From Benincasa hispida (lineage: Eukaryota; Streptophyta; Magnoliopsida; Cucurbitales; Cucurbitaceae), in assembly GCF_009727055.1 (NCBI RefSeq), contig NC_052351.1, positions 12,032,439 to 12,096,438 of the forward strand: a stretch of 64,000 bases of DNA, written 5' to 3'. The notes under the pieces are model-generated. The model saw only the letters and a list, made by a program, of their open reading frames with translations, was not told the DNA's origin and did not search any database. Positions 1,241-42,977 of the stretch are shown here, piece by piece (the first letter of the stretch is position 1; every line of letters starts with the position of its first letter). A program made the translations under genes and the position numbers.

Positions 1241-1244
1241 CGAA

Positions 1245-15133: not shown

Positions 15134-15145
15134 GTTCTGATACCA
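15134..15145 (-). other. Primer-binding site of element 1
   Basis: The minus strand reads TGGTATCAGAAC two bases inside the 5' LTR end (..CCTTCA AT TGGTATC). It matches the initiator-Met tRNA type PBS with one or two substitutions. Confidence 0.85.
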
Positions 15146-17168: not shown

Positions 17169-18180
17169 TGCATTTCCTTATTCATGGCTTCAATCCAACT
17201 TCTTGCATTAGGACCACTTGTGGCCTCTTCAAAGGTAGTTGGTTTTTGATCAGTAAGAGCCACTACAATATTAAACACTAAGTTCATATAGTTCATTTCA
17301 GTATACCTAGCTGGAGGAGTAATAACTTTTCTTTGTCTGTCTCTAGCTAAGGAATATTGGCTTAAATTAGGCTGAGTATTGATGGTTTCAACATGTTCCC
17401 ATGTTTCTTCCTCTTCTTCATCTTATGAAACACTAGGTAGATTAGGTTCTATTGGTTGCTCAGTAGGTATCTCCACCTCAATTTCTATGGTAGAAGTTTC
17501 AGCTTTATCTTCTGGCTTTTCTTCCTTTTGCATAAACATTTTTTGCTCTTTGAAAGTGATGTCTCTCAAACTAAATGCAACCCGAATATATCTTCCATAC
17601 ATTGACTCCTTCAATAAAGCCAACAAACATACACTTAGTAGCTCTAACCTTCCTTTTTCCCTTGTTTTGGTGCGCAAACCCCACACACCCAAATACCTTA
17701 AGGTTATCTAGATTATGAGGATGGTTAGACCACTTCTCTTCAGAGGTAAGTAACTCTAGAGAGGTATGTGGGCACCTATTTAGGGTGTAGACTATATAAG
17801 CTGCAACTTCTACCAAAAAAAAATTCACTTAGAATAGCATCAAACAACAAACACCTTACCCTTTCCACTATTGTTCAATTTAGCCTCTCAGCAACCTCAT
17901 TCTATTGAGGTGTATACATCACAGTCCTACATCTTGTTATTCCATTTTCATTACAAAACTTATTAAAATCTTCATTACAAAACTCAAGCCTATTGTCAAT
18001 TCTAAAGTACTTTAACCTTTTACATGTCTGATTTTCTATCATTATTTTCCAATCTTTGAACTTCCCAAAAACTTGATCTTTGGTTTTTAAGAAGTATATC
18101 CTGCTTTTTCTAGAAAAATCATCTGTTAAGGTTAGAAAGTATCTTGAGCCACTAAGGCTTGGAATCGAGGATGGTCCTCA
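17169..18180 (-). pseudogene. Element 4 copia pol fragment (integrase to RT start)
   Basis: On the minus strand, right to left: integrase core (LTDDFSRKSRIYFL near 18130-18090; RIDN..LEFCNEDF near 18005-17960; YTPQ-stop-NEVAERLN near 17915-17870), the C-terminal region LKVFGCVGFAHQNKGKRK (about 17710-17650), and the RT start (EATSGPNARSWIEAMNKEMH, about 17230-17170). The stop in the integrase replaces the second Gln of the PQQN motif (CAG to TAG). The sequence differs from elements 1-3, so this is another copia lineage. Its N-terminal part continues at 34911-36441, beyond the nested insertions. Confidence 0.8.
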
Positions 18181-19684
18181 TGTTGGGTTGTATGTCCTAA
18201 AACTTGCAGTTTGTAATAATTAAATATATTCTATCTACAATAAAGATGTTATTGAGATTTATTCAATAAAGTTGTTATTGAATGTATAAAGTTGCACTTG
18301 TAAAACCTAAATCCAATAAACTAACGAACCTCTGGCTGTAGTATGAATACTTAAACCTTATGTGGAGACATAAAGGAGGATTAGGTTTAAGTATATAGCC
18401 AAAATGGTCTATAAGTATAAGAATAGGGTTGGGTACCTTATCCTCGAGATATTATAGATGCGACATGCTTTGTATTAGATACAAATGATATGATCTCGAA
18501 ATCATTCATGTATAGACATACAAGTGGGGGCATCCTATGCAAAAGATGTTTGTATAAGACAGGACCACGAAATAGTCATTTTTCTTTATAACGACCGTTT
18601 ACTGTTAAAACTGACTATTTTAATCTGATGACCTAAGGTAACTTGATCTGAATCTTGAGCTAACTATGAACTCCTGTTTACTCAAGATGTCCTTTAATTT
18701 GCATGGGCAAGAGTGACTCAACAACGCCACTCAATAAGCCTCCCATTTTAGGGGTAAGACATTCTCTCCTGCCCGTTTTAGGGTTAGCAAATAGATTGTT
18801 CCCTTAAGTACTGACTCCTAGTTTTGAACAAAGGGGCCCCACCCTTTCTATGACTGTGAGGGACTCAATTTTTTGGTAGAACCATATACCAATTGTTCAT
18901 TAGTGGATTAATGGAGATTTAAGGAGCAAGATATATTATAGGGGTAAAACGGTAATTTTGATCAAACTATAAATACGGACAACCTGTGAAGGATCGACTT
19001 ACTCATCCTGATTAAATCAAATGGACAAAAATATATCAATAACGAGGAGAGTGCAACTACTGGCCTTTCATGGAGTGATCTAGTAGTTAAAGAATGTTGA
19101 TTAATTCGATCAAAAGAGTTTAGCCAATTAATCTCAGATCATTGAAGCTCATGATCTGTAGGTCCATTAGGCCCCCCTACTAGCTCACAAACGGACTAAA
19201 CCTTAGAATAACGTGATGAGAAAATTTGAAACGTTCAAGTTGATTTGAGGGAATTATTAATTATATGCGATATAATTAAACATTTAATTAAATGATATTG
19301 GAGAATTTGAGAATATTTAAATATGATTTAAATATTAATTACATGAATAGAGATTCATGTTCTGGAATTAATGTTATATTAATTTAATATTTGATATTAA
19401 TTTTATTAAATTGTTTAATTAATTAAAAATAATTATTAGATTTAATTTTGTTTAAAATTAATAAATTTTATTTAAAATATTAATTATTGAATTGATATTT
19501 TATTAAAAAAATTCATTTTAAACTTGAAATTTGAGATTTCAAATTAAATTGATTTATTAAACAAAATCAATTAAAAATGAAAAATTAGGGTGAAGTGGGA
19601 ATTTACCACTTCTCCCACTCAATTTTATACCTAAAAATCCACTTCCAATCGAGTTGGATTGGTGTCACTCAATTATGTAAGTTG
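18181..19684 (+). mobile_element. LTR E: 5' part of a solo LTR inserted in element 4
   Basis: It starts TGTTGGGTTG at 18181 and is interrupted at 19684 by element 2. Its 3' part is at 34520-34905. Together they make a plus-oriented LTR of about 1890 bp. The outer duplication reads CCTCA (18176-18180) and CCCTA (34906-34910). Both are one C-to-T step from CCCCA, which restores the WGPS reading of the integrase on the other strand. Confidence 0.85.
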
Positions 19685-20810
19685 TGAAAGAACTCTTATA
19701 CAAGAGTGCCTCTAAGCGGAAGCGGATATTTCCAAAAGCATTGTGCCAGAATTACCACATTTACATTTACACATACAGATTGCATCATAATACTAAATTA
19801 CTGACATGCTTAGAGATAAATAAAAAGAAGAACAAGTAAATTTACTGTTGAAGACTCTCTTCACAACAAATCTCGCTTTCCCTGGAACGACAAGCTATTG
19901 TTAAGCAACACCCAATCGTCTACCACAAATAGTCTCCACACGAACAGATGAGGAAAAGGGACGACACTTACCACTTGGAACCCTCAGTATTCCCAGAGTG
20001 AGAATCCAAAGAATGGGCTCTGTTCGGATTTGGTATATGGGAAGAGGAAAAGAGATCGTATACAACGATCAAGTAAGTGAGAGAAAGACTCGTATACAAA
20101 ATGCTTGATCGTTTAGGTGAAGTATACGATTGTGTAGGAAAAGCTAAGCGATCGTCTATACAATTGTGTAGGAAAAGCTAAGTGATCGCCTATACGATCA
20201 TTTTGTAAAGCTCGGGCGCTAAACAATCGTTTAGTAAAAGATAAGCGATCGTTTAGTATGTAGCATGCACGGGTGTAAATGATCATTCAGTAAACAACAC
20301 TATCATATAGACTCTGTTTTACTAAGCGATGACCCTCTTAAAACACTCTGCGATCAAATGCTTAATACACCGTGAGCTATTTAAGCGTATCAAAAATGAT
20401 TCTTAATCTTACTCATCAGTTACGAAAACAGAAGATACACTGGCAAATTATCCCATAATTGTCCAATTAATAAATAATAAATATAATCACATTATATTCA
20501 TAACGTATGGATTAATATCATATGTTAATCATAGTATTTTTCCCCAACTAGATATAAATCATATTTATATCCAATTTTCTCCAAATTAATGTATCTCATA
20601 CATAAAGACAATTATATCATATATAATTAACTAGTTCAATTATATATAATTGAACTTCCTCTTGTCAATTTGAATATTTCAAACTGACCCAAAAACTGAT
20701 TCTCAACTTGTATCCAAGCTACCAATGGGACCTTATGGACCTATGGCTCGAAACTCCAACTGTATGTAAATAACTGACTAAACTCATTAGCCACGATATC
20801 CATCATCCTT
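19685..20810 (-). mobile_element. LTR F: truncated 3' LTR of element 2
   Basis: The left terminus TGAAAGAACTC matches the left terminus of LTR V (TGAATGAACTC at 49481). It includes the 'cgatcgtttag'-type motif array near 20100-20300. The right part is deleted: 'atccatcatcctt' is followed at once by gag sequence at 20811. Confidence 0.8.
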
Positions 20811-21637
20811 CAGATAGCGAGGACAATTCCTCTTCCAGTGCCCATCTTGGTTGCAGTGGAAACATGTTCCTTTTTCAACCGGCTGTGGATGCTTCTTCTA
20901 GGCGATAGGTGGCGGGTTAGTAGGCGCTTTCCCTTTCCCTTTACCACCATTTTCTTCTTCCCCTTTCCAAAGTTGAAATTAAAGGTGCAGACTTCATCCC
21001 AGAGGTCGAACCTCGATGGAACTTTTTAGAACACGAGTCAACATTTGCCTCACCTCACCTCTTCTTCTTACTTTTCAGCAAATATTGGTAAGTCTGCAAC
21101 TTGTTGAGGAGAGTATTAATGGTATATTCCACTTTGTTAAGAATCGTATTGCTAACAAAGTAGAGGAAGCTCTCCGGTAATGAATGTAGGATAATGCTAA
21201 CCTGACTGCCCTCATCAATTTTAGACCCATTCATCTCCACCACGTTAAAGTGGACCATTATATTAAGGACGTGTTCACGAACAAAGATGTCTTCCTCCAT
21301 TTTGGAGTTGAAGATGCGTTTCAGAGCCTCGTGCTTGAGCTATCCAAACATTCCCCGTAGGGACTCCATGATCTCACGTGCTGAAACCATGGACTCATGT
21401 TTCTTGGCCAACACGCCACTAAGACTGGCCAAGATATAGGCTCAGGCCTTCTCGTTTGCTCGTGTCCATCACTCGTACGCCCCTCAAACATTTCGAGTAG
21501 CGTCTTAAGGTGGAATAGGAGGACAGTTCTCCGTAAGGACAAACTTCAGATCCTCGATGATGAGTATCGTCGTGATCATATGTTTCCAACTCGAGTAGTT
21601 TTTCGGTGCTTAGTAAACTAATAGTGGTTGTAGCCAT
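20811..21637 (-). pseudogene. Element 2 gag (UBN2 type with zinc knuckle)
   Basis: The start codon complement is at 21635-21637 (MATTTISLLSTEKLLELE). Central gag is read near 21290-21070 (VREHVLNIMVHFNVVEMNG, ILHSLPESFLYF), then an intact zinc knuckle CFHCNQDGHWKRNC near 20875-20830, which satisfies CX2CX4HX4C. The product would be the capsid/nucleocapsid protein of a copia element. Frameshifts after residue ~20 and stops (for example TGA in the NVW-AYE region) make it a pseudogene. It ends at the deletion junction with LTR F, with no protease following. Confidence 0.85.
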
Positions 21638-21950
21638 TTTTAAAACTGTAGTTGAAAACGAATAAACTTTTATAAGATTTTGAAAAACCACATTTTAACC
21701 AATTAGTTTTAGCAAAACAGTTTCCAAGTACCCTAACTGATAAGACTTCTATTTTGCAATGATGCCCCAGCGAGGCAGGAAAAAAGTCGCTGATGGGGCG
21801 ATCAGATGTCCCTCCATTATGATGAGACATTCTCAACCATTAGGCAGAACCAACTCTTGGAACTGAACCTAACAGCCACCATTTGTTTAGTTCAGAATTG
21901 TTAACCCTTAACAATTTCACGTAAGTATAACCCTTCGTTTTCGATCCCAA
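21638..21950 (-). mobile_element. Element 2 leader remnant
   Basis: This matches the gag-proximal leader of element 1: the 'cttctattttgcaatgatg' block near 21745 corresponds to one near 10965. Near 21900 it has the 'cttaacaatttcacgtaagtataacc' region, also present in elements 1 and 3. Just beyond, the sequence jumps into the LTR at about 21950, deleting most of the leader, the PBS and the LTR end. Confidence 0.65.
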
Positions 21951-23370
21951 ATTTACCAGTTGAAGACTGCCTTCACAGCAAACCTAGCTTTCGCTTGAAC
22001 GACAAGCTATCGTTCCGCAACACCTAATCGTCTACCATGAATAGTCTCCACACGAATTGATGAGGAAAAGGGACGACACCACCACTTGGAACCCTCAGTA
22101 TTCTCAGAGTGAGAATCCAAAAAGTGGGCTCTATTCGGATTTGGTAAAAGGGAGGAGGAAAAGAGATTGTATACAACGATCAAGCAAGTGGGAGAAAGAC
22201 TCGTTTATCGTATAGATATAATGTTTGATCGTTTAGGTGAAATATACGATCGTGTAGAAAAAGCTAAGCGATCGTCTATATAATCATGTAGGAAAAGCTA
22301 AGCGATCATCTATACGATCGTTTAGTAAAGCTTGGCCACTAAACGATCGTTTAGTAAAAGATAAGCGATCGTTTAGTAAGTAGCGCGCGTGGGTGTAAGC
22401 GATCGTTGAGTAAACAGCACTATCATATAGGCTTTGATTTATTAAGCGATGACCTTCTCAAAACACTATGCGATCAAATTCTTAACACACCGTGAGCTAT
22501 TTAAGCAACTTAAAACGATTTTTCATCTTACTCATCAGTTATGAGAATGAAGAGACACTGGCCAATTATCCCATAACTGTTCAATTAATAAATAATAAAT
22601 ATAATCACATTATATTCATAACCTATGGATTAATATCATATATTAATCATAGTATTTTTCCTTCACTAGATATAAATTATATTTATATCCAATTTTCTCC
22701 AAATTAATGTATCTCACACATTAAGACAATTGTATCATGTATAATTAACTAGTTCAATTATATATAATCGAACTCCCTCTTGTCAATTTGAACATTTCAA
22801 ATTGACCCAAAAACTAATTCTCAAATTGTATCCAAGCTACCAAGGGGATCTTATAGACCTATGGCTCAAAGCTCCCACGGTACTTGAATAACTGACTAAA
22901 CTCTTTAGTCACGATATCCACCATCCGTTAACTACCAGGCATTCTACTAAAGACTGACAGCTAAACTCTTCTTACCATAGATATATTTCTATGTCCATCG
23001 GATATAACCAATCATTAGTACGACGACCCTTTATAGATGCTCGTAAGTACAGCTTGGCCAATTTACCGTTTTTACTCTGTAGTTTCATCTTACTTCTTAA
23101 GTACCACTGATCCCTCTAATGAAGAAAACAACATAGTCCTACTATGTGTGAACACGTCTCGGACCATGAGAAGGTGTTTGGCGCCACATCGTTCAAGCTC
23201 CAAGATCAACCCTTGAGGGAGCAATCTATCTACTTACCCCTGCTTTAGGGAAGGAGTGAACTCCATCTTGTGTAGCGGAGTTTCCAGCTCCCAAATCAGA
23301 CGAATCCCCAAAGTGGTAGGTTTGAGCAGGCGCTCTGGGCACTCGCACCCAAGCATATCAAAGGATCGTT
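21951..23370 (-). mobile_element. LTR H: main part of the element 2 5' LTR
   Basis: Minus-oriented LTR, close in sequence to LTR F over the 'gaacgacaagctatcgtt' and 'gatcgtttagtaaa' blocks. It stops at 23370, where element 3 begins with TGTTGGG. The continuation is at 33985-34514: 'caaaggatcgtt' here and 'ccgtcttcaatggcag' there are adjacent in other LTR copies. Confidence 0.85.
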
Positions 23371-25490
23371 TGTTGGGATTTGTGTCCTAATTCTCCCAGA
23401 GTCTCGTTGTTTTGTAAAGATACACATATTTTAATGAATAAAATAAGTGTTATTTAATTCTGGCATTTACTCATATACAATAAACAAAGCTCCTTGGTTA
23501 TCTTATGTGAACTTAAACATGTATATATGATATACAAGTGGATCATGCCTTAAGTGATAACCTAAAAAGGTTTGTAGTATAAGGATTAAGGTGGGATACA
23601 TGATCCTAGTGACACTACGGATATGGCCTCCTTTGTAGATGTTTGTAAGTGTTGTAAACTACTACAAATGGTAGATCCTGACCATTCATGTGGAGGCGTG
23701 CGAGCAAGGGTATCCTATACAAAGAGTTTGTATAAGACTTGAACCATGAGATGACTAGACTCTGTATATAACGCCGTTGATACTAGACACTTGCATCTCA
23801 CCTAAACGATCATAAGTGACACGACCTCAATCCTGAGTGTTTTGGAAACTCCTGCCTTTGAGGGTGGTTCTTTGATTAGTATGGGTGAGAGTGGCCAGAT
23901 TGCCAACTCAACATGCCTACTTTTTTGGGGACTTGTCTGATCTGGGAGCTGGGAACTCAATCCACAATATGGAATTCACTCCTTTCCCGAAGTAGGGATA
24001 AATAAAGAGATTGCTCCCTTAAGGGTTGATTTTGGGGATTGAACATAGTGACCACAGCTTCTCTTTGGAAGAGAAGACTCAGTCATAGTATGACTATGAC
24101 TTATTTTCATTAGAGGGATCAGTGGTACTTAAGGAGACAAATGTAACTACAGGGGCAAAACGGTTATTGGCCCAACTATATTTACGAGCAATCTGTGAAG
24201 GGTTGTCACACTACTAATTGGTTAAGATGGACACATAATATATCTGTGGTAAGGAGAGTTCATCTATCGGTCTTTAGTGAAGTTCCTGGCAGTTAACAGT
24301 TGGTGGATCCCGTGACTAAAAAGTTTAGTTAGTTATTCACGTATCGTTGGAGCTTCGAGCTATAAGTACATAAGGTCCCCTTGGTAGCTCAATGAATTTA
24401 GCTGGGGATTAGTTCTTGGTGTTGATTTGAAATCTTTAAATTGACAAGAGGTATTTTGATTATATATGATATAATCGGTATAATGTATGAGATACATCTA
24501 GTGGAGGATTGATGTAAATGAGATTTACATTAAGTACTATGGAATAGAAAAAGAACTGTGGTTTGTATGTTTCATGAGATGAAATATTAAAACTATATGT
24601 TATAAATATTATGATAAGTTGGTTATCGTTTATATTTATAATAATATTAATTACTAAATAATTAATTCTTTTTCTTTAATAACAAAATGAGTGGCTGGTT
24701 ATTGGATTCATGGTAATTGTGAGTTTAAAAGCAAAGTGGTTTTCATATTTTGAAAAAATGATTTACAAACTGTTGAAAAGTTCTCGTAAATTTTTTTTTT
24801 GAGTTTTCTCTCTCGTGCAAAAGAAACTAACGTAGTAGGAAAGTAAATACGAATTTACTAAACGACAGTTGGGCGAGCTAAACGATCGTACAATATTTAC
24901 CAAACGATCACATAGTTTTGCTAGAAGATTGCTTGCCCAAAGTTAACGATCGTGTAATGTCTGTAGGCGACAGACCGTGCTAAATGATGAGCTAGAAAAT
25001 CACAAAGCTTTATCTAAACGATTAGGCATCGACCTATACGATAGGTCTTCGCCATCTCCCACTTGCCTAGTCGTGTACACAATTGGTGCTTTCCTCCTTC
25101 GTCTGCCTCATACAAAGTTCAAACAGAGCCCACCCTCTAGATTCTCATACCGAGAATACCAAGGTCGCCTTGTTAATGGTGTGTTACTTAACTCGACAAC
25201 GCCGAGGTTCTGTGGAGGCCATTTGTGCTTTTACTAAGGAGTTCATGGCCGAGGCGATCGTTGAGGACGAGTGCGAAGAGTTCGTGCTGTGTTGCGGTCG
25301 TGTAGATCGAGCGTTCAAGGTTGCTGTTGTTTGAGTGGTCGTGCGCAACGGAGCATGGAGATGCATCTTCAAATGTTCGTAGAGTTTCTCTCTCCGTTCA
25401 TTTGAGTTTTTCATGCTGTAATTTTTGTATGAATATTATAATCGCTTGTTTGAAGTCGACTGTAAATGTAATGTTCATTCATGATTGTAG
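23371..25490 (+). mobile_element. LTR J: 5' LTR of element 3
   Basis: Starts TGTTGGGATTTGTGTCC. It is visibly closest to LTR K, with long shared stretches such as 'tgcgcaacggagcatggag' and 'gatgcatcttcaaatgttcg' allowing few substitutions. The right edge is approximate, because the LTR passes into the leader without a readable PBS. Confidence 0.85.
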
Positions 25491-27655
25491 TTAGCAAACT
25501 TCATCACTTAGTTACTACATATGAGATCGCGCGTATGCGATACGGAGGCGCTAGCTAAGCGATCTCTTAGGCTATGGTGCTTTGCGACATTATAGTCGCT
25601 TAGATGATCATGAAAGGCGGGCGTTTTGCGAAGCGTGCTAAGCGATCGTGTACTTCAGGCTTCATCGGTTAGTAAAGGTACACGATCGTGTAGTAATAGC
25701 TAAATGATCGTTTAGATTTTTCTGAACGATTGTATAGTATATGTTAAACGATCGTTTAGCTCTAGGAGCGTTGGTAAATGATAGAGCAAAGCATTTGTTT
25801 TATCGTGTAGACGATCGTGGGGTGCTTAGTATACGATGGATAAAGGAGTGATGCTTTGCCCGAGCGGTTCAAAACCCGGTTCGCCTATTTGAACCGGAGA
25901 CTCCTTTTTGTGTAATACTTAGCTTTTCTTTTGTGTTTTTAAGGCAATTTTACCTGGTTCATGAACATTGGTTGTTTATACATGTGATTTATGGTAGTTA
26001 TATGCCAAAGTGTTTATCATATAGTTAAAACCCACCTTAGGTTGTGCAATTATTCATGCATCATGTATTATAATTGTTATAATATTGCATGAATAAATTA
26101 CTTAAAAGCATGAGCATGCATCATGAAATATAAGAGTTATATTTTGCATGCAGTGAGCATTATCATGCATCATCCTTTTATTATAAATGTTATAGTCTAA
26201 GGGAGAATGGAAGCATCTTTTGCTTGTTTCATTACGGTTTTGTATAAGTATTATATAAAAGAAGTAGCAATGAATGGACAATACATTAAGCATGACACTT
26301 AGGCTATTTATAAGCATTATCAATGCTTTGAATGTATTAGTTTCGCATTGTGGTGGTTGTTTCCGTTTATAAGTGTTATAAAGAAAATTAGACCTAAAAT
26401 CAATAATTCAAAGTTGCATGTGGACTTAGGGTGAACTCAAGTTTTTTAAAAGGATTTTAAAATTGTATTGAGATAGATCTAAGTTCAAATGGTTCTAAAT
26501 TGTTTAGTAACCTAGATTAATCTTTTAAAATCAATTTAATAGGATAAAATTGGTTGGAATAAAAGATTTAAATTTGTTGTAAACCTATCTATAAGGGACC
26601 TTTTGTCTAAGGTGGGTTCTGGCTAGGCTAGGGGTCTTAAGTTGACGGAAACGTAACACCCCTACCTGGGAAACTACCTGGAAAGGTGAATTAGATAGAT
26701 TTTTAACAAGCATACGACGATTTGGTCAAAGACTCTGTTAAAGAGTTTAATGGATGATGATCAAAAGTTGTTCGACTATCCAAGGTAAAAGTTACGCTTG
26801 GGAAAACCTAAAAGTCACTTAGTTAAAATCCTTAGCCGTGTTTTTTCTAAGTAAGCTAAACCCTAGGTTATAAAATACTCAGCGGGAGGAAGAGGCATAT
26901 GAGATATGTCTATAATTCCATGCACGTTTCTCCCTGTATGTTCACACCGTGAGATTCATGCTTAGCCTTGTGGTGCCCAGGATGCATCCCTCTTCAGATG
27001 GTGTTTGCATTAGTCAATATCAAGGTGTACGGAGATAATATTTATAGTAAGTGGGTGAAGGGTGTGTGTCAACATGTCTTATGGTCTCTGTCATTGGTTC
27101 ACACCATGAGATTATTCTGTACGCCCTTGTGTCGCCTTCGAAGCGTCCCCCTTCGGATGGGTTTTGTGCAATTGGTCAATATCAAAGTGAACTCCAGAAA
27201 TGGATATGGTACTTTAAGTTTTGCCCCAATCGGATTTTTTCCCTTCAGATTGGCCTTTTGGGATGGACCTCTAGGGCTTAAAATGGTGGATTATATTTAC
27301 GGGAGATTGTTAAGTAAGTTAATGATCTCTTGGCTAAATCAATGATGGCTAGTCTTTATAGGAGCAAGAGTTGTTCCGATATTAATGACTGGTTGAAAAC
27401 TTCTCAAGTCAGAGGAGGGATAACTGACCTCCCTTCAACGACTTTTGTTCTAAACCTTTGAAGCGTCATTGCGAAACTAGATGTCACAAGGGGTTCTTAT
27501 TAGTTTTGCTAAAACCTTATTGGATGTTGTTTTGTTTTACAACGGGTATTTGCTTAAAACCTAACGTAGGTCAATATGTTTTTCTTTTCAGAAACTCATT
27601 AGTATTTCCGTTTAAAGCTTTTATAAATGACCGATTTCTTACAGTGAAAAGAATC
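25491..27655 (+). mobile_element. Element 3 long 5' leader
   Basis: This ~2.2-kb non-coding stretch corresponds block by block to the element 1 leader. Part of it (26930-27200) is a diverged tandem repeat, with 'ttcacaccgtgagat'/'ttcacaccatgagat' and 'gtgtttgcattagtcaatatcaa'-like copies. 27460-27650 matches the gag-proximal leader. Open frames in 26968-27345 are by-products of this repeat and show no protein family. Confidence 0.6.
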
Positions 27656-28975
27656 ATGTGAAACAAATTTCGTGGCAAACGACCTCGATCCCACTACTCT
27701 TTAAAAGAAGAGACAAGAGAGTAAATATGATTTATTGGTCTTGGAGACATATCTGGTAGAGAATGATGATTCTACCTGGATCCTCGATTCAAGTGCTACC
27801 AATCATGTCAGTTCCTCTAACCAAGGATTCAATTCCTAGCAAACGTTGCCACAGAGAAAGATGACTCTTCGAGTCGGTACTGGTGCGGTTGTTTCAGCTG
27901 TTACTGTAGGCAGGCTGAAGTTATTTGTTGACAAGAAATGTTATCTATTATTGGATAATGTTTTTGTAGTTCCTCATATTATTGGATTACGAGGAACTTA
28001 ATCTCAGTTTTTTGTCTCATTGAACAAGGCTACACCGTCTCCTTTCTGAGAATAAAATGTTTATTTTCAAGAATGGACTGGAGATTGGTTATGGTTCAAT
28101 GAAAAATAACTTATATGTACTAAGGTTGTTAGTCATAAAAGCCTTGTTTAACACTGAAATGTTCAATACGACAACAACAGCTAAAAGACTAAACGTTTCT
28201 CCAAAGGAAAACGCCCTTCTTTGGCATCTTAGGTTAGGTCATATCAACCTCAATAGGATTGAGAAGTTGGTGCAAAGTAGACTTCTAAAGAGTTTAGAAA
28301 AAAACTCCTTGCCGGTATGTGAATCATTCCTCGAAGGCAAGATGACCAAACGACCTTTTACTGGAAAAGGTTACAGAGCCAAAGAAGCCTTGAAGCTTGT
28401 ACATTCAGACCTCTGTGGTTCGATGAATATTAGAGCTTGAGGTGGGTATGAATATTTCATCTCTTTCATAGATGATTATTCAAGGTTTGGGTATCTCTTC
28501 CTAATGCAACGTAAGTCTGAAGCCCTTGAGAAGTTCAAGAAGTATAAGGCTGAAGTTGAAAACTTGTTAGGTAAGAAGATAAAAACACTACGATCTGATC
28601 GTGGTGGAGAATATATAGACCTTCAATTCCTAAATTATATGATAGAACATGGGATTGCATCCCAACTCTCGACCCCTGGTACACCTCAGCAGAATAGTGT
28701 ATCAGAAAGGAGAAACAAGACCTTGTTGAACGTGGTTCGGTCTATGATGAATTATGCTCATCTTCTAGACACGTTTTGGGGTTATACAATACAGACTGCA
28801 TGTTATATCCTGAACAACATTCCCTCGAAAAGTGCTTCTAAAACACCTTTTGAGTTATGGAGAGGACGTAAAGGTAGTTTACGTCACTTCAGGATTTGGG
28901 ACTGTCCGACACATGTGCTAGCGACTAACCAAAGAAGTTGGAATCGCATTCATAGGTTTGTCTCTTTGTAGGCTA
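27656..28975 (+). pseudogene. Element 3 protease and integrase remnant
   Basis: The gag ATG may be at 27656, but gag is almost wholly deleted. The frame picks up at the protease: LVLETYLVEND then STWILDSSATNHV near 27770-27810 (copia DSGAT motif with Ser for Gly). Next come the integrase zinc-binding segment (WHLRLGHINLNRIEKL, 28215-28265; CESFLEGK, where the second Cys is Phe) and the catalytic core with the expected acids: VHSDLCG near 28400, SDRGGEY near 28600, NSVSERRNKT near 28700. Stops (for example TGA at 28438) and frameshifts split it. Confidence 0.85.
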
Positions 28976-31971
28976 CCCCAAGGAAACGAGAGGTGGATAT
29001 TTCTATGATTCGAGTGAGAATAAAGTGTTTGTTTCCACTAATGCTATCTTCTTGGAAGAAGACCACAGGGATCATAAGCCACGAAGTAAGAACTCGTTTT
29101 ACAATAAGATCTCTAGTGAGACTAAGACTGTTAGGGCTTCAACAAGAATGTTTGCAGAGGACGGGACGTCTAGTCAACCAGCTCAAGAGTGAGACTGCCT
29201 CGACGTAGTGGGAGGTTATGAACCATGGATCGCTACATGGTATGACTGAAGCCAAAATGTCATTACAAATGAGATCCGTTGTCTTTTAAGAAAGTAATGA
29301 AGGATGTTGACAAGGATGAATGGGTTAAAGCCATGAACCAGGAAATGGAGTCTACATACTTCAATAATGCCTGGGAGCTTGTTGATTCACCTGATCGGGT
29401 AAGACCTATTGGGTGTAAGTGGCTCTACAAGCAAAAGAAAGGTGTAGATGGAAAGGTGCAAACCTTTAAGGCTAGGCTCGTGGCAAAGGGTTATACTCAG
29501 GTTGAGGTAGTTGACTAAAAGGAAACTTTCTCACCTGTTGTCATGCTGAAGTCTATCCAGATTCTCCTGTCCATAGCCACATTTTATGATTATGAAATAT
29601 AGAAAATGGACGTCAAGACTGCTTTTCTTAATGATAATCTTGAGGAGACCATCTATATGACTCAACCAGAGGGATTCATCGTTTCAGATCAAGAACAAAG
29701 AGTTTGCAAGCTTAATAGGTCCATTTATGGGCTGAAACAAGTATCTCGATCTTGGAACATCAGATTTGACACTACTGTCAAGTCATTTGGCTTTGACCAG
29801 AACATTAATGAGCCTTGTGTTTACAAGAAGATCATCAACAGCTCAGTATCCTGTACTGTATGTGGATGATATCTTACTCATTTGGAATGATATATGGTGA
29901 TAACTTGTTGAAATACAAGTTATTTTTGCTCTTAAGTTGGAACAACTAAGGTTTTTAATGATAAATTCTCCTCATTTTTAGAAGAAACGCATGGATTTAT
30001 TCAAACGTTAGCAAACTCATACAAAAGAAGTTTTATTACTAAATATTGCGACACTGACGCATTGTATTACAGGATTTCAACGCAAGGATTAATGCTAATG
30101 CATTAGACAAGTGCCGCAGGAAAAGCTCTAATGCATGGGCCATGCGTTGGAGGGAGTTCAATGTAGAAAAGATTCATTACTTCAGGCTGATTGTGTCACA
30201 TCACCACTTGCAAGTATGGGCACCTGCAGCAGGCGGCGTCTGAAAAGCTTCCACGCAGTAGACGACGTCTGAAAAGCTTCCGAGAGTCAAGCGGCTAATC
30301 AGGGCATGGACTTTAATGCTGCCTATTCACCAAATGAACGTGACCAACACCTATAAATAGATGAAGTCCCTCCAGAGTCAAGAAGTTCGAAAATTATCAA
30401 GATCCTTACTCTCTGTATATTATAGACATAGTTTTAGTTCTTAGAAGTTGTGTTATGGTGCCAGACGATCAGAAGGGTTGAAAACCACCACTACCGCCGG
30501 TCAGGGAGTGGAGGAAGCTACTCTTGAGAAAGACACTTCATCCAATTCCTATTTAAGTGATTGTACACAACGAGATTGAGCCAAAGAAATACAAGAGATT
30601 GTATTCTTTGGCTTGACTATGTTTCTTTCATCTCATTTATTGCTTTCATTTCATTTGATTAAATATTGCTTTTGTAAAGACTCTTTGTTTCTTTACAAAA
30701 TCCATATATTTGATCCATCATACTTACCATTGTTTATTTCTTGTTTATGTTGAATGCATTAATACTTTATGCCAAACTTCATTCCAACGCTCAAGCCAAC
30801 TTGAAAAATTGGTAAAAAGCATATTTAACTTAGATTGTTCGAGAGAATAACTAAGCTGCATCAAGTAGAACGCATAGTACAGTTAGAGATAGACTTACTG
30901 GTGTCTATTGCATTCTGTGTTAGACGCATGCATCCTAGAGATAGGTTTTGTATGTTATTCAAATTGAGAAATGTTGAATGAAGTCTAAAGCATGAACAAA
31001 AGATAAGCAAATCACTCCATCCCATCCACATCACATCCTTGTTTGTGTACATTCATCTTAGATCGACGTGTCCACTTACATTAAACTCCATTCTCACATG
31101 ATCCATCACTAACTACTCAACACTTTTGCATCTCTTGCACAGGCACATCAATTTAGTGTAAATAACACATTTCTCACATTTATTTAGGAAAAACCCCTAC
31201 AATAGATACAACGCAAGGTCTGCGTTTGGTTAATTGAATCCCTGAGTTCGACCTTGGACTTACCAGGAACCTAAATTAGAATTATACTTGGGTCTGGTTT
31301 AGGAAAACTTGAACGTCATTAGGAGTTGTGTGCGTTCTGTTGCATATATCTGACGCCCCAACGTGTTACAATTACTTAAATGCATCAAAGCATAAATGCA
31401 TCACTTATACCTAGAACTTATTCTTCCAATTTATTTTATACAAAATACTCTTAGAGCGAATCATCATAGCAACGAACATAGGGTATCTAACTGACATTAA
31501 GAGTTGGTTAACTGCCCAGTTCCAAATGAATGATTTGGGTGAGGCAGAGTATGTTATCGGGATCCAGAATATTCTGGAACGCAAGAACAAACGGTTAGCC
31601 CTGTCTCAAGCATCGTATATTGATCAAATGTTGATCAGGTACAGGATGCAGGATTCCAAGAGGGGTTTGTTACCCCATCAGGCATGGAATCATTCTGTTT
31701 AAGGATCAATATCCTAAGACACCTCAAGAGGTTGAGGAGATGAGACGGATTCCCTATGCTAGGAATCTTGATGTATGCAATGTTGTATACCAGACCCGAC
31801 AATGCAGTAGGGATTGTCAGTCGGTATCAGTCCAATCCAGGATTTGATCACTGGACGGCGATCAAGACGATCCTCAAGTATCTTCGAAGAACGAGGGACT
31901 ACATGCTTATGTATGGAGATAAGGATCTAATCCTTACAGGATACACGGACTCTGACTTTCAGACCGATCGA
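28976..31971 (+). pseudogene. Element 3 RT and partial RNase H, split by insertion Y2
   Basis: RT begins near 29279 (DEWVKAMNQEME, GCKWLYKQKKGVDGK, KARLVAKGYTQVE), followed by MDVKTAFLN (29606) and YVDDILLI (YVDD at 29859-29870). The gypsy-like insertion starts just after. RT resumes at about 31478 (GYLTDIKSWLTAQFQM) and runs through LGEAEYVIGIQ to the RNase H start (TGYTDSDFQTD near 31935-31970). There it fuses to the interior of LTR K, removing the C-terminal half of RNase H. Several frameshifts are present. Confidence 0.85.
29889..31477 (+). mobile_element. Gypsy-like insertion Y2 in element 3 RT
   Basis: About 1.59 kb between the YVDDILLI and GYLTDIK motifs of RT. It begins TGGTGATAACTTGTTGAAATAC and ends near GAACA. 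It has a TATA-like 'cctataaatagatg' near 30350, 'aacgca' words, and the 'ccctgagttcgacc' block near 31235 typical of gypsy LTR ends. It is the same family and orientation as 12810-14722. No ORF of a known domain is present. The flanking duplication is decayed and not certain. Confidence 0.55.
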
Positions 31972-33984
31972 GCTTCTCACATTTACTCATATCCAATAAA
32001 CAAAGTTCCTTGGTTATCTTATGTAAACTTAAGCATGTATATGTGATATACAAGTGAATCGTGTCATAAGTGATAATCTAAATAGATCTGTGGTATAATG
32101 ATTAAGGTGGGATACCTGATCCTGATGACACTACGGATACGGCCCGCTTTGTAGAGGTTTGCAAGTGTTGTAAACTACTACAGATGGTAGATCCTGACCA
32201 TTCATGTGAAGACGTACGAGCGAGGGTGTCCTATACAAAGAGTTTGTATAAGACCTGGACCACGAAATGACTAGACTCTGTATATAACGCCGTTGATACT
32301 AGAGATTTGCATCTCACCTAAACGACCATAGGTGACACGACCTCAATCCTGAATGTTTTGGGAACTTCTGCCTTTGGGGGTGGTCCTTTGATTAGTATGG
32401 GAGAGAGTGACCAGATTACCAACTCAACAGCCTACCTTTTTGGGACTTGTCTGATCTGGGAGCTGGGAACTCAATCCATAATATGAAATTCACTCCTTTC
32501 CCGAAGTAGGGATAAACCTTAAGGGCTGATTCTGGGGCTTGAACATAGTGACCACAACTTCTCTTTGGAAGAGAAGACCCAGTCATAGTTTGACTTTGAC
32601 TTATGTTCATTAGAGAGATCAGTGGTACTTAAGGAGACAGATGTAACTATAGGGGCATAACGGTTATTGGCCCAACTGTACTTACGTGCGATCTGTGAAG
32701 GGTTGTCGTATTGTTGATTAGTTAAGATGGACACATAATATATCTGTGGTAAGGAGAGTTCAGCTGTCGGTCTTTAGTGAAGTGTCTGGCAGTTAACAGA
32801 TGGTGGATCCCATGACTAAAGAGTTTAGTTAGTTATTCACGTACCGTTGGAGTTTCGAGCTACAAGTTCATGAGGTTCCCTTGGTAGCTCAATGAATTCA
32901 GTTGAGGATCAGTTCTAGGTGTTGATTTAAAATGTTCAAATTGACAAGAGATATTTTGATTATATATTATATAATCAGTATAATTTATGAGATACATCTA
33001 GTGGAGGATTGATGTAAATGAGATTTACATTAAGTACCATGGAATAGAAAAATAACTATGGTTTATATGTTTCATGAGATGAAATATTAAAACTATAGGT
33101 TATAAATATAGTATGATAAGTTGGTTATCATTTATATTTATAATAATCTTTTTTTAATAACAAATCAATGAGTGGTTATTGGATTCATGGTAAGTGAGTT
33201 TAAAAGGAAAGTGATTTTCCTATTTTGAAAAAATGATTTAAAAATGTTGAAAAGTTTTATAAAAAGTTTTTTGAGTTTTCTTCTCGTGTAAAAGAATAAT
33301 GTAGCCAGCAAGTAAATACGTTTACTAAATGCAACTGGGCAAGCTAAATGATGAAAGTGGGAGTAATGATCGTACAATATTTAAACGATCACATAGTTTT
33401 GCTAGACCATCGCTTGCCAAAAGTTAACTGTGTAATGTCTATAGGTGACAAACGTGCCTAAATGATGAGCTAGAACGATCGCATAGCTTTATTAAACGAT
33501 TGGGCATCGACCTGTATGATAGGTCTCTGCCATATATCCAGTGTGTACAATGGTTTTTTTTGTGTAACAAGTTGACATAAGATTTTGGATTTAAAAGATA
33601 AGATCGCCTTGTTGGTGGTGTCTTACTCAACTCGACACCGTCGAGGTTCTATGGAGGTCGTTCCTGTTGTTGCTGAGGAGTTCGTGGCCGAGGCGATCGT
33701 TGCGGATGAGTACGAAGAGTTCGTGCTATATTGCAGTCGTGTAGATCAAGCGTTCTAGGTTGCTATTATTCAAGCAGTCGTGCGCAACAGAGCATGGAGA
33801 CGCATCTTCAAATGTTCGTAGAGTTTTTCTCTTTTTTCATTTGAGTTTTTCATGCTATCATTTCTATATGAATTATATAACCGCTTGTTTGAAGTAGACT
33901 GTAAATTTAATGTTCATTCATGATTGTGATGTGGAATAATTGTTCTTCCACTAATCATGGAAATCTCGAATCCGATTTCCTTCA
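31972..33984 (+). mobile_element. LTR K: 3' LTR of element 3
   Basis: It lacks about the first 90 bases relative to LTR J: it begins at 'cacatttactcatatccaataaac', which corresponds to base ~23463 of J. It ends TTTCCTTCA at 33984. It also has small deletions in the 'cgatcg' motif region (33300-33500). Confidence 0.85.
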
Positions 33985-34514
33985 CCGTCTTCAATGGCAG
34001 AAATTCCCAACTCACTCAGGATTGAGGTCATGTTTCTATGGTCATCCTAGTGAAGTGAAGCCTTTGTCATGAACGGGGTTATATGACAAGACGTTAACAC
34101 TTCTTGGTCAGATCTTATACAAACTCTTTGTATAGGACACCCCCGCTCGCACGTCCGCACATGAATGATCAGGATTAGATCATCTGAAGCAAGTCTTAAC
34201 CTTTGTAACTATTCCACAAAGCGGGCCGCATCCGTAGTGTTACCAAGATAAGGCTTCCCTCCTATATCCATATACTATAGACCATTTTAATTATCACTCA
34301 AGACATGATCCACTTGTATGTCACCACATACATGCTTAAGTTACATACAGATAAATAGGGATTTTATGTTTATTGGTTTGTGGTAAAGCAAATAAAATAT
34401 CCAAATGTGCAAAGTCAATAAGTGAAGTAAATATCATATATTATACATCACAAGCATTCGTACAATCTATTTACAAACTACAGGATACGAGACTTTAGGG
34501 CATCAACCCCAATA
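33985..34514 (-). mobile_element. LTR N: remainder of LTR H (element 2 5' LTR)
   Basis: This continues LTR H after the element 3 insertion: 'cttcaatggcagaaattccc', the 'actcactcaggatt' and 'ctatggtcatcctagtgaa' blocks, then the LTR start 'gggcatcaaccccaata' at 34514. It is followed by the AGTTG target-site copy. Confidence 0.85.
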
Positions 34515-34519
34515 AGTTG

Positions 34520-34905
34520 CATGAGGATTTTGAATAAAAAAAGGGAATTCAAATCAGCTGAAGAAGGAGATGCAAAATTGGATTTTGCTGAAAACCAATT
34601 CTTCATTCTCTTGACACCAAAACCAGATAGCTCTCCTTAAAATTCCCTTGAAATCCTAGTCATTTTGGAGCCCACGATCCAATCTAAGCTCTTAGAGAAT
34701 AGTAAGAAATATCAAATGGTTGTTTTCAAGGATTTGGAAAGGAAAAACGAGCAAGATGTTGCGGAATTGAGGAGATCTTCAAAAGTAAAGCATTCTGAAA
34801 CCCTAAATGTATTTTTATGTTCATGCATGCTTGTTACTTAAATTAATGAAATTAGAGTGCCTAATGATTATGCTTGCTTCTGCTTCTTGCATGCTAGTTT
34901 TATCA
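34520..34905 (+). mobile_element. LTR O: 3' part of the solo LTR begun at 18181
   Basis: It carries on from the sequence interrupted at 19684 and ends TTTTATCA at 34905, followed by the CCCTA target-site copy. The 'tgaaattagagtgcctaatgat' end block is shared with LTRs A and B. Confidence 0.8.
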
Positions 34906-34910
34906 CCCTA

Positions 34911-36441
34911 TAAGTCAGAATGAACATAGCCAAGTATTTCTTTGTAGTATGCTGAGATTTTATAAAGCTTTTCCTAGTAGCTTTCCCTAATATGCAATGT
35001 TCACAAAAGGAAAGATGTTCAATGATCCTTTTAGGCAGTATACCTTACTTAGATAGAATTTACATCCTTTAGCACTGATATGTGACAATCTTTTGTACCA
35101 TAAGTCTGCTTCTGTCAAGGCTATTATAGAAATAGCATAGGATCCAATCATCATTTCTACTCCTCTAACAATATAAAAGTCATTTACTTTCTCACCAACC
35201 AAGACCATCTTAGAATCCTTAATAACCTCTATGATTCCATTCTTTCCCCTGAATTCACACCCTATGGAGTATAACATGCCCAAAGATATCAAATTTCTCT
35301 TGAGTAAGGGTACATGTCTAATATTTCTAAGAATCTTGACTGATCCATCTTTCAATTTTAAAGATACTGAACCAATTCCCTTGATCTTACAGGATTCATT
35401 GTTCCCCATATACACCAGCTCTCTATCTAAATCTTTGTAGATGTTAAACCAAGGTCTAAAAGGTGTTATATGAAAGGTACAACTAGAATCTAGTACCCAA
35501 TCATGCTTCCCTAAAGGACTTACCTGGTTGGTTTTATTCTTTCTAGAGGCTAAGGCATCAGAATAGAAGTATGAACCTTCGACAACAGAGGCTTCAGGCT
35601 GTTTTCCTTTATAATCCTTCTCCTTTTATTAATTCTTTCTTTTTAGACTATAACAATCTCTCATAAGATGTCCCTTCTTCTTACAGTAGATACACCTCAG
35701 TTTAGTTTTAGGCTTGTGTTCTTCACTAGGCTGCTGTTTACCACCTTTAGATTAGTTCTACTTGTTCTTGCCTTTGACAAATAGTCCTACATTAGGCTGT
35801 TTCTTCTTGATGACTTAAAGCTCTAACTCTCTAGTCCTTAATGGTGAAATAATGGCATCAGTGGTTATTGACTCTCTATCATATTTCAAGGCATTTTTCA
35901 CCTCCTTACAGGCTTCGAGTGAATTCAATAGGACAAAAGCTTTATTTTCATCACCAATCTTTTCCCCAAGGCTCTTGAACTCAGAAATTATTTTTAAACT
36001 CATCCAAATTTTCAAATAGTGTTTTAGCATAATCCATCTTGAATGTGAAGAATTTTTCTCTTAAAAACATCTTGTTAAGTAGATCTTTTGTGGCATAAAG
36101 ACCTTCTAGCTTAGTCCACACCTTATAAGTTGTGTCTTGGTCAATTACTTGTCTTAAGATGTTGTCATTAAGATTGAGAACTAATGTTCCATATCTTTTC
36201 TTTTTTGTGATGTAATTTTAGGAGCCAGAGTAGATGGATTCGAGAGGGCCTTGTGGACTTTCTGTTGTCCTAGTATAGCCTTGATTTTGGCCTTCCATAA
36301 GCCAAAATCACCCTTTCCATCAAATTTTTCTATTTCGAACCTTGCAACAACTACTTCTTGATCTAAAAACTAGTCTTGAATTACCAAGATTTATCTTCTT
36401 GAATATCTTGATGCTCCAAGAAAAGCTAATCTTATGATCTT
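34911..36441 (-). pseudogene. Element 4 gag, protease and integrase N-terminus
   Basis: Minus strand, right to left: gag (SLGEKIGDENKAFVLLNSL near 35970-35910), zinc-knuckle region near 35700-35650, GAG-pre-integrase and protease-proximal region (GIGSVSLKLKDGSVK, LRNIRHVPLLKRNLISLGML near 35380-35270), then the integrase zinc site (FCEHC, GKATRKSFIK near 34985-34940) and YVHSDL followed by TAG at about 34912. The last codon fits the Trp start of the WGPS sequence that continues at 18175. This fragment and 17169-18180 are therefore one polyprotein interrupted by the nest. Stops and shifts are present. Confidence 0.8.
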
Positions 36442-36454
36442 GGCTCTAATACCA
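36442..36454 (-). other. Primer-binding site of element 4
   Basis: The minus strand reads TGGTATTAGAGCC. It lies four bases inside the LTR end GCCCAACA and is one base from the usual TGGTATCAGAGCC. Confidence 0.85.
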
Positions 36455-36458
36455 GTTT

Positions 36459-37151
36459 TGTTGGGCTATCTCTTTTAATTTTTAGGTCCACAGAAACCAA
36501 CTGAAGTTCAAGTTATCTGCAAAGAAGGCCCAAATGGATTGAATTCTGATGCAATGGAAGCTTGATTGAAAGGAAGTGGTTGGTTTTACAAGATCGCGTA
36601 GATAGCGTTATCTCTATACATGTATGGGGATAAAATTCTGCTTCTTCATATCAAATTGATGAAAAGAAAAAATTCATTTGGTAAATATCCCCTCTCTCTC
36701 TTATCTACGATTATTTCAACTTCTTTTCATATTAGGGTTTCTTCAGCTAATTCTTTGTTGATTTTGCAGAGTTAAAATGTTGCATAGACAAACTAAAGAT
36801 GAAAGAAGGAAGAAGATGAACACATAAGAAGTAACGTGGTTCGGCCAAACATGCCTATATCCACGGGAAGGACTCTTTTATTTCTTGAAGATTGTTTAGA
36901 CTTGTAGTTTTTCTTTTACAATGTAATTTTTGCTTTCTTATGTAAACTAATCTAATTTTGGTATTTATAATTCATACCATATAAGTTACAAAATTGAAAA
37001 TTTTTTATGTAAAAGTATAAAAACTAGTCGTCGGATGTGTTTAGAGTTAGCTTCTTTAGGTATATTATGTTGAACCTCCAATCATACATACCTATAAGAG
37101 GAAGGGTAAAAAGGGAATCACACCAAATATTGTGGGAAGGGAAAATAACTG
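36459..37151 (-). mobile_element. 5' LTR of element 4 (possibly truncated)
   Basis: The inner end is TGTTGGGC at 36459 (minus strand ...GCCCAACA), adjacent to the PBS. Its sequence is unrelated to the ~2-kb LTR family. The outer end cannot be fixed, because another LTR starts at 37152; about 690 bp are visible. Confidence 0.6.
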
Positions 37152-37742
37152 TGTTGAGATTGGTGTCCTAAATCTCTTGTATTCTCGTAGTTTGTAAACA
37201 TTGTATAAACAAATTGTTATTAATAAAATATTGTTACTTTATGAGCATACACTCAATCCAATAAACTAAGATCCTAGGTTATTTTATGTAATTTAAACAA
37301 GTATGTAGAGACATACAAGTGGATTTTGTTTAAATAATAAACTAAATAGTCTGTATTAGATGGATAAAACTAGGTACCTTATCCTGGTGACACTACAAAT
37401 ACGAGCCGCTTTGTAGATGTTACAAGTGTTGTAAAGTGCTACAAATGATCTAATCCTGATTATTCATGTGGAGACATGTGAGTGGGGTATCCTATATAAA
37501 GAGTTTATATAAGACTGGACAACGAAAAGATTAGTCTTATTATATAACGTTGTTAATAATAAAGACTTACATTTCCCCAGGATGACCATAGGTGACATGA
37601 CCTAAATCCTGAGTGAGTTGTGAACTTCTGCTCATGAAGGCGGTCCTTTGATTTGTATGGGTGAGAGTGGCCAGGTTTCCAACTCAATATACCTACCATT
37701 TTGGGAATTCGTCTAATTGGAGAGCTGGGTACACAACTACAT

Positions 37743-42164: not shown

Positions 42165-42491
42165 ATCTCAATAACCATTCTTTAATTGTAACTGAAAGAC
42201 TTGGCAAAATCAGTATCACTCAGTCGCCATAGATGCACTGAACAGTTCATCCTCACTCCAAAAAAAGGAAAAGCTTTTCATTTTCATGATTCCCTCAAAA
42301 GGAAATTATTAGAGGTCTACTCAAGCATCATCATTACTTTCCCCCAATTCCTGTTCCCCCTCTGTTTTATCCCTTCTTTCCAATAACCACAACTTGAAAC
42401 ATTCTAAATGCAAAAAAAGAAACAAGACCCACTTTGCCAATTGTGCATAAATGATTATTTTGGCCTCCAAATTCCCTTCAAAGCAGTGAGA

Positions 42492-42977
42492 ATGAAAGCA
42501 GGAGGCTCAAGCCATCAGCATCAGCAAGAACAGAGAGCATACAGAGCCTTGTGCTGTGGATGCACTTGCAACTGCAGATTGAGTTTTTCTTCTTCAGAAG
42601 AAACAGAAAGCTTCAGCTCTGAGCGATTCCCATCAGTTTCCAGCATCGCCCACGCCATGGTTCAGGAGAAACTCGATCAAATGATAAGGGAAAAACGAGA
42701 GATAAGAAATGGTAAAGAAAGAAAGAAACAGAGAAGTGAAGATACCAAATTTGTTGTAATGGTGGCTATGGAGAAATGCTCTGATGACCCTAAAGAAGAC
42801 TTTAGAGTTTCAATGACGGAAATGATTTTGGCTAATCGAATTGAGAAGCCAAAGGATCTACGTAACCTCTTGAACTATTATATCTCCATGAACTCAGATG
42901 AATGTCATGGTGTTATTCTCGAGGTATTTCATGAGGTTTGTAGCAAATTGTTTTTGGCTTGTGAACGCTATTGGTAG
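42492..42977 (+). CDS. OVATE family protein (transcriptional repressor), single exon
   Basis: Encodes a small OVATE-family protein (OFP) of 161 residues if translation starts at 42492. OFPs are plant nuclear transcriptional repressors that bind TALE homeodomain proteins and affect organ shape, elongation and cell walls. The conserved C-terminal OVATE domain covers residues ~86-154: [15 protein letters not shown], then [27 protein letters not shown] and the end [14 protein letters not shown]. The N-terminus has a Cys-rich patch (CCGCTCNC) and a Ser-rich stretch; the middle is basic (KERKKQR). An upstream in-frame ATG at 42408 would add 28 residues, but its -3 base is T, while 42492 has A at -3, so 42492 is preferred. 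No intron, as usual for OFPs. It converges on CHRC. The exact OFP subgroup is not resolved. Confidence 0.88.

What the first reader, a model, noticed from the sequence alone, without database searches (positions are those of the whole stretch)
17169..37151. Five-level nest of retrotransposons whose order can be read from target-site duplications
Element 4 (copia, -) is cut in its integrase by a solo LTR (TSD CCTCA/CCCTA at 18176 and 34906). That LTR is cut by element 2 (perfect TSD AGTTG at 19680 and 34515). Element 2's 5' LTR is cut by element 3 (TCGTT/CCGTC at 23366 and 33985). Element 3's RT is cut by a gypsy-like insertion (29889-31477). Each junction rejoins a coding or LTR sequence seen elsewhere in the window, giving a relative chronology from sequence alone.
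Basis: partly seen in the sequence, partly recalled or inferred. Interest (0 to 1): 0.75.

Follow-up and report, generated by a model that had tools for sequence, protein, structure and literature searches.

The report
Five-deep retrotransposon nest in wax gourd
A stretch of wax gourd chromosome holds five jumping genes stacked one inside another, so that their order of arrival can be read directly; the stacking is real, but such nests are ordinary in large plant genomes.

Summary
The nest is real. Five LTR-retrotransposon insertions lie on one line: a copia element (E4, -), a solo LTR, a gutted copia element (E2, -), a copia element (E3, +), and a second solo LTR. Each has target-site duplications (TSDs), two of them perfect, two matching at only 3 of 5 positions. 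The two flanks of each inner junction align side by side in relatives: one protein for the first junction, three of five relatives tried for the second, 12 of 13 printed for the third, five of five printed for the fourth.

- The innermost insertion is 29898-31478, TSD TATGG/TAGGG: a solo LTR of a Ty3/gypsy family.
- E4 does not end at 17169 or 37151. Its 5' LTR is 36459-37058; its 3' LTR lies 16 kb left of the window. GGTAT flanks both ends, so E4 spans about 53 kb.
- E2 and E3 have lost internal and terminal parts.

LTR divergence does not reproduce the order: K2P is 0.116 (E4), 0.126 (E2), 0.136 (E3), with overlapping intervals and a trend the wrong way. Nesting alone gives the chronology. 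A published survey reports such inversions in 25% of nested pairs, and wheat 3B has nests of up to 8 layers. This is a new example of a known kind.

The parts
17169..18180 (-). Level 1: element E4 (Ty1/copia, -), integrase core to start of reverse transcriptase; continues left of the window
   Evidence: PF00665 rve profile positions 22-102 in 17902-18177; P0006 residues 169-197; the RT start is read by eye from the translation, Pfam gave no hit to 17123-17419
34906..36458 (-). Level 1: E4 gag, Pol_BBD and start of integrase, with PBS at 36443-36454
   Evidence: PF22936; gag by homology to P0015, no Pfam hit of its own; P0006 residues 1-160; PBS with one mismatch
36459..37058 (-). Level 1: E4 5' LTR
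   Evidence: 88% BLAST identity to L002 3825-4411, K2P 0.116 over 590 columns; lies between PBS and TSD
37059..37063 (.). TSD of E4, right copy GGTAT (left copy at L002 3819-3823, window coordinate -16181 to -16177)
18176..18180 (.). TSD of level-2 solo LTR, left copy CCTCA
34906..34910 (.). TSD of level-2 solo LTR, right copy CCCTA
18181..19684 (+). Level 2: solo LTR, left part (TG at 18181)
   Evidence: alignments to relatives L002, L003 and L007 start at the same base
34515..34905 (+). Level 2: solo LTR, right part (CA at 34904-34905)
   Evidence: L002 aligned to 34517-34905 next to the left part
19680..19684 (.). TSD of E2, left copy AGTTG
34515..34519 (.). TSD of E2, right copy AGTTG
19685..20808 (-). 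Level 3: E2 3' LTR, truncated (only its 3' part)
   Evidence: 88.5% identical to the E2 5' LTR over 968 columns; L001 4851 corresponds to 19685
20809..21948 (-). Level 3: E2 internal remnant (gag only)
   Evidence: PF14223 in 21058-21339; 21699-21941 matches E3 27523-27280
21949..23370 (-). Level 3: E2 5' LTR, left part
   Evidence: L001 4690-3350, 85%
33985..34514 (-). Level 3: E2 5' LTR, right part; its outer end reads TA, not CA
   Evidence: L001 891-414, 87%
23366..23370 (.). TSD of E3, left copy TCGTT
33985..33989 (.). TSD of E3, right copy CCGTC
23371..25488 (+). Level 4: E3 5' LTR; its 3' end and the PBS lost by deletion at about 25486-25492
   Evidence: sister of the 3' LTR in a tree of the LTR's 5' half, 95/91; relatives L018 and L019 run past the deletion point, and L019 keeps a PBS
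25489..29897 (+). Level 4: E3 leader, gag-pre-integrase, integrase, first part of reverse transcriptase
   Evidence: PF13976, PF00665, PF07727; L019 89.9% over 25985-28749
31479..31973 (+). Level 4: E3 rest of reverse transcriptase and start of RNase H; PPT and first 86-87 bases of the 3' LTR deleted
   Evidence: L010, L012 85%
31974..33984 (+). Level 4: E3 3' LTR
   Evidence: right end equals the LTR end before the PBS in L019
29893..29897 (.). TSD of level-5 solo LTR, left copy TATGG
31479..31483 (.). TSD of level-5 solo LTR, right copy TAGGG
29898..31478 (+). Level 5: solo LTR (1581 bases) of a Ty3/gypsy family
   Evidence: 37 of 42 genome matches (the window's own included) share both ends within 2 bases; eight same-strand pairs start 8.6-13.1 kb apart; inside one pair, RT-RNase H closest to Ty3 and then integrase

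Best explanation
Five ordinary LTR-retrotransposon integrations happened one after another, each into the previous one. E4 (copia) integrated first; the 419 and 88 bases examined just outside it have no relative in the 284 kb sampled. A second element, with LTRs related to those of E2 and E3, integrated into E4's integrase and later shrank to a solo LTR by LTR-LTR recombination. E2 integrated into that LTR, and E3, whose LTR is homologous to E2's, integrated into E2's 5' LTR. A Ty3/gypsy element integrated into E3's reverse transcriptase and also shrank to a solo LTR. E2 and E3 lost parts by deletion. Shown: the junctions, TSDs, collinear flanks, the LTR nature of the innermost piece, and the missing parts of E2 and E3. 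Inferred: that the solo LTRs arose by recombination, that the losses came after insertion, and any statement on absolute time.
For: TSDs at all five levels, E4's and E2's perfect; 20 of 25 matching TSD positions were reached in 0 of 400,000 random draws, best 19. J1: P0006 residues 1-160 align to 35409-34931 and 169-197 to 18177-18091, both minus. J2: both flanks in order in 3 of 5 relatives tried. J3: 12 of 13 relatives printed read straight through. J4: 5 of 5 printed read straight through; in L012 the two flanks overlap by exactly 5 bases. E3's LTRs are sisters, 95/91, among 20 rows. The innermost family forms LTR pairs.
Against: J1 and J3 TSDs match at only 3 of 5 positions. The ends of J4 and E4 were set by eye with the TSD in view; E4's 3' LTR begins AG instead of TG, and two outer ends (E2 right, E4 right) read TA instead of CA. 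J1 rests on one of 15 protein homologues; a third, weaker piece of it (157-179, 48%) runs some 35 bases past the junction into the solo LTR. In L003 and L007 only the left flank of J2 was found. L008 has a short deletion at the J3 site. E2's two LTRs are the closest pair by distance but not resolved as sisters, 56/38, and a first tree on 231 columns put the 3' LTR with L001, weakly. LTR divergences rise inward (0.116, 0.126, 0.136), the wrong direction, though not significantly. E4's central reverse transcriptase was not located. Assembly error is not excluded by reads; the published assembly used PacBio subreads averaging 6.1 kb (PMC6856369, passages).
Confidence: 0.95

Rival explanations
1. 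The nest is an assembly artefact: repeats joined wrongly during gap filling.
For: The assembly used Illumina contigs with gaps filled by PacBio subreads of 6.1 kb average (PMC6856369, passages), and the neighbouring stretch L013 has 2580 N.
Against: The window has no N. Wrong joins would not be expected to fall at LTR ends with TSDs on both sides at five levels, nor to leave collinear host flanks in relatives.
Confidence: 0.03
2. Some pieces were brought together by recombination between related LTRs or by segmental duplication, not by successive insertion; above all E2 is a composite of two elements.
For: Many related LTRs lie close together. E2 has a very short internal part, and its LTRs are not resolved as sisters.
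Against: E2 has a perfect TSD at both ends. Its LTRs are closer to each other (K2P 0.120) than to the nearest relative seen, L001 (0.153 and 0.167), over about 900 columns. E3's LTRs are sisters.
Confidence: 0.05
3. The order is right but the insertions fell in one short burst, so the chronology carries almost no time depth. (Compatible with the best explanation; it concerns timing only.)
For: LTR divergences of E4, E2 and E3 overlap. With 4.5e-9 per site per year (PMC6856369, passages) the ages are 12.9, 14.0 and 15.1 million years, with 95% ranges 9.8-16.3, 11.6-17.2 and 13.1-17.2.
Against: The wide intervals also allow several million years between steps. Gene conversion can reset LTR divergence (PMC7251063, sections 13, 15, 17). 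The published wax gourd LTR peak is later, near 9 million years (PMC6856369, section 8). The two solo LTRs cannot be dated this way.
Confidence: 0.35

Closest known systems
Nested LTR-retrotransposon clusters of cereals (wheat 3B: 30,199 nested insertions, up to 8 layers, clusters up to 301 kb; PMC4290129, passages)
   Same: LTR elements inserted into older elements, order read from interruption
   Different: A cucurbit; one example of about 53 kb with five levels on one line; not deeper than published cases
Nested pairs with inverted LTR divergence (PMC7251063: 1042 of 4126 pairs, 25%)
   Same: Inner element E3 has LTRs at least as diverged as those of outer E2 and E4
   Different: Here the differences are within error
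Autoinsertions, nesting into the same family (PMC6911290, passages)
   Same: E3, E2 and the level-2 solo LTR share LTR homology, and E3 sits in E2's LTR
   Different: That survey found LTRs not commonly targeted; here two of the four nested insertions lie in LTRs
Automated nesting chronologies such as REANNOTATE (PMC2672092, passages) and TE-greedy-nester (used in PMC7251063)
   Same: Same logic of relative dating
   Different: Done by hand here, with relatives from the same chromosome

Membership tests
Ty1/copia (E4, E3, E2) | Integrase before reverse transcriptase in the polyprotein, RVT_2 type RT | tested here: met
   Met for E3: PF13976, PF00665, then PF07727 in this order on +. E4: PF22936 then PF00665 on - and an RNase H piece next to the 3' LTR by comparison with L010 (45 aa, 38%); E4's own RT core was not found. 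E2: only gag PF14223, so its placement rests on gag and LTR.
LTR retrotransposon (E4) | Paired LTRs, PBS, PPT, TSD | tested here: met
   LTRs 36459-37058 and L002 3824-4413, K2P 0.116 over 590 columns; TSD GGTAT on both sides; PBS 36443-36454 with one mismatch; purine tract before the 3' LTR read by eye
LTR retrotransposon (E3) | Paired LTRs, PBS, PPT, TSD | tested here: inconclusive
   LTR pair and a 3-of-5 TSD present; no PBS hit; PBS and PPT regions fall in two deletions of about 0.6 kb judged against L019 and L010
LTR retrotransposon (E2) | Paired LTRs, PBS, PPT, TSD | tested here: inconclusive
   LTR parts and a perfect TSD present; no PBS hit in its span; leader missing by comparison with E3, and only gag found in the 1140 bases between the LTR parts
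Solo LTR (18181-19684 with 34515-34905) | One LTR, TG to CA, TSD directly at both ends, no internal part | tested here: met
   the TSD matches at only 3 of 5
Solo LTR (29898-31478) | One LTR with TSD at both ends; family known as paired LTRs elsewhere | tested here: met
   no same-strand partner nearby among the 42 listed matches (40 of 2842 candidates were scored)
Ty3/gypsy (family of 29898-31478) | RT-RNase H before integrase; RT of Ty3 type | tested here: met
   Inside the pair at C10:3348826/3357718, in order on the minus strand: RT_RNaseH PF17917 and PF17919 with RVT_1 just under its cut-off (28.3 against 29.6 bits), Integrase_H2C2 PF17921, then an integrase-type ORF. The RT-RNase H piece is closest in the PDB to Ty3 (4ol8, 7q5b; E 3e-28 and 5e-28).
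Athila lineage within Ty3/gypsy | Lineage-specific RT and integrase phylogeny | not tested
   Recalled resemblance only; a PF20167 hit just under its cut-off (43.6 against 45 bits) does not decide

The most novel reading that the evidence does not exclude
At least three levels of this nest (E4, E2, E3) accumulated within a time too short for LTR divergence to resolve, new copies landing in copies not long integrated, two of them in LTRs of related elements. That would mean homology-linked or chromatin-linked targeting during one burst, rather than random re-hitting over many million years.
Probability: 0.1. Interest if true: 0.4.

Novelty: new member of a known kind. Interest (0 to 1): 0.2.

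Why it matters
It is a sequence-verified stratigraphy in a cucurbit whose large genome is attributed to LTR elements (PMC6856369, section 8). It gives an internal check on LTR dating: the true order is fixed by nesting, and LTR divergence does not recover it here. The estimated ages lie near the reported split from watermelon (about 16.3 million years, same source), so presence or absence at the watermelon locus would test the clock.

Tried and rejected
17169 is where another LTR (15318-17168) cuts E4's RT, and 37152 is the start of another, + strand LTR, so neither is E4's end.

Considered and rejected: reading the LTR pair of E3 as older and therefore nested wrongly. The intervals overlap, and the nesting evidence is independent.

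Led nowhere: a search for E4 copies genome-wide. The queries for the left half and the right half did not complete. E4's internal part has no relative in the 220 kb of neighbouring DNA (E-value 1e-10). No other cucurbit genome was at hand, so the orthologous-locus test was not done. A literature search on deletion by short repeats returned one paper, not read; one on gypsy lineages led to passages of PMC6317226, which settled nothing here.

Not followed: copia lineage names for E2, E3 and E4.
Full report
Source. The window is C3:12,032,439-12,096,438 of a 912.9-Mb genome. It is wax gourd, Benincasa hispida: contig C10 of this genome has 62,154,845 bases, the same length as a contig that carries Benincasa proteins, and the published assembly is 913 Mb (PMC6856369, passages).

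Junctions. I checked each junction by searching its two flanks apart and asking whether they land side by side in relatives.

J1 (solo LTR in E4's integrase). Among 15 protein homologues of E4's right half, one, P0006 (197 aa), aligns on both sides: residues 1-114 and 118-160 to 35409-34931 (two frames), and 169-197 to 18177-18091, all on minus. A further weak piece of it, 157-179 at 48%, runs from 34943 to 34875, past the junction. The alignments of the other 14 end before the junction. No DNA relative of E4's internal part was found in the window (two 500-base flanks) or in 220 kb of neighbouring DNA.

J2 (E2 in the solo LTR). Of five relatives tried, L002, L004 and window 1150-3000 (minus) carry both flanks in order; L003 and L007 matched the left flank only. 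In L002 the left flank matches up to 19639 and the right from 34517, with 35 bases between them there against 47 left over here. The identities of these matches are 62-72%.

J3 (E3 in E2's 5' LTR). Seven relatives in the window and six places in neighbouring loci were printed. I picked them by hand from the hits (in the neighbours 34 for the left flank and 31 for the right), and did not use hits that stop short of the site. Twelve of 13 read straight through; L008 has a short deletion at the site. Two of the 13 are E3's own LTRs.

J4 (innermost insertion in E3's RT). Five of five printed relatives read straight through (window 5.8 kb; L009, L010, L012, L015). In L012 the two flanks overlap by exactly the 5-base TSD. 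A sixth, split over the adjacent loci L011 and L010, has the right spacing but was not printed.

TSDs. The five pairs match at 5 (E4), 3, 5, 3 and 4 of 5 positions. Twenty of 25 matches were reached in 0 of 400,000 random draws; for the four inner levels alone, 15 of 20 in 9 of 400,000. The draws do not allow for the ends of J4 and E4 having been set with the TSD in view. Four of the five mismatches are C/T differences, as expected from decay of methylated cytosines (general knowledge).

Innermost insertion. It runs from TG at 29898 to CA at 31478. A genome search gave 42 matches (2842 candidates, 40 scored), of which 37, the window's own included, share both ends within 2 bases. Eight same-strand pairs start 8.6-13.1 kb apart, so it is an LTR, and here a solo one. 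A relative in L001 (77-81%) starts at the same left base. Inside one pair (C10:3348826 and 3357718) the order on the minus strand is RT-RNase H, Integrase_H2C2, then an integrase-type ORF. The RT-RNase H piece is closest to Ty3 in the PDB. The integrase-type ORF had no Pfam hit of its own but 4895 homologues, 8 of the 120 listed bearing PF00665. So the family is Ty3/gypsy. The Athila lineage is a recalled guess.

Element 4. Its PBS is at 36443-36454 and its 5' LTR at 36459-37058. A matching LTR lies at L002 3824-4413, 16 kb left of the window on the same strand, with a purine tract and an RNase H end beside it. GGTAT flanks both outer ends. E4's central RT was not found (with E3's RT as query). 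The 419 and 88 bases examined outside E4 matched nothing else in the sampled 284 kb.

Elements 2 and 3. E3's LTRs are sisters (95/91, 20 rows, LTR 5' half). E3 lost its PBS with the end of the 5' LTR, and its PPT with the first 86-87 bases of the 3' LTR, in two deletions of about 0.6 kb relative to L019 and L010. The alignments on the two sides of these points overlap by 7 and 5 bases, a sign of short shared words (sequences). E3's right end at 33984 equals the LTR end that stands before the PBS in L019. E2 keeps only gag between its LTR parts. Its LTRs are the closest pair by distance but not resolved as sisters; a first tree on 231 columns placed its 3' LTR with L001, weakly.

Ages. K2P is 0.116 [0.089-0.146] for E4 (590 columns), 0.126 [0.104-0.155] for E2 (968 columns) and 0.136 [0.118-0.155] for E3 (1933 columns). 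Bootstrap differences between levels include zero; the outer element has the lower value in 70%, 74% and 87% of draws for E4/E2, E2/E3 and E4/E3. Over the LTR part that E2 retains, E3 gives 0.162 [0.137-0.189], still overlapping E2. So the LTR clock neither confirms nor refutes the order. PMC7251063 (abstract and sections 13, 15, 17 read) reports inverted divergence in 1042 of 4126 nested pairs and proposes gene conversion as a cause.

Limits of the chronology. It orders insertions only. When the two solo LTRs lost their internal parts is not fixed by the nest.

Comparison. Nests of this kind are long known. Wheat chromosome 3B has up to 8 layers (PMC4290129, passages). I found nothing that sets this nest apart in kind.

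Noticed in passing
2983-4777 and 15318-17168: Two related minus-strand LTRs, sisters in the tree (95/93), K2P 0.141, with a PBS-like site at 15134-15145. They probably belong to one element inserted in E4's reverse transcriptase; no matching TSD was seen at 2983 and 17168.
   Followed up: partly
L001 409-4864: Close relative of E2's LTR that seems to carry an insertion of its own (about 898-3295), some tens of bases from the position where E3 cut E2's LTR.
   Followed up: no
37152-37745 and 37743-39659: Right of E4, a + strand LTR starting at 37152 appears to be cut by another LTR at about 37743, so nesting continues outside E4.
   Followed up: no
42408-42977: ORF with an Ovate domain (PF04844), a plant gene just right of the nest; a possible anchor for finding orthologous loci.
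   Followed up: partly
45935-46417: Reading frame with the start of a PAP/fibrillin domain (PF04755 positions 2-58 of 198), probably an exon of a plastid-protein gene.
   Followed up: partly
12840-13218: Tandem duplication of 190 bases, 90% identical.
   Followed up: no
L013: 2580 N in the 10 kb just right of the window, an assembly gap.
   Followed up: no
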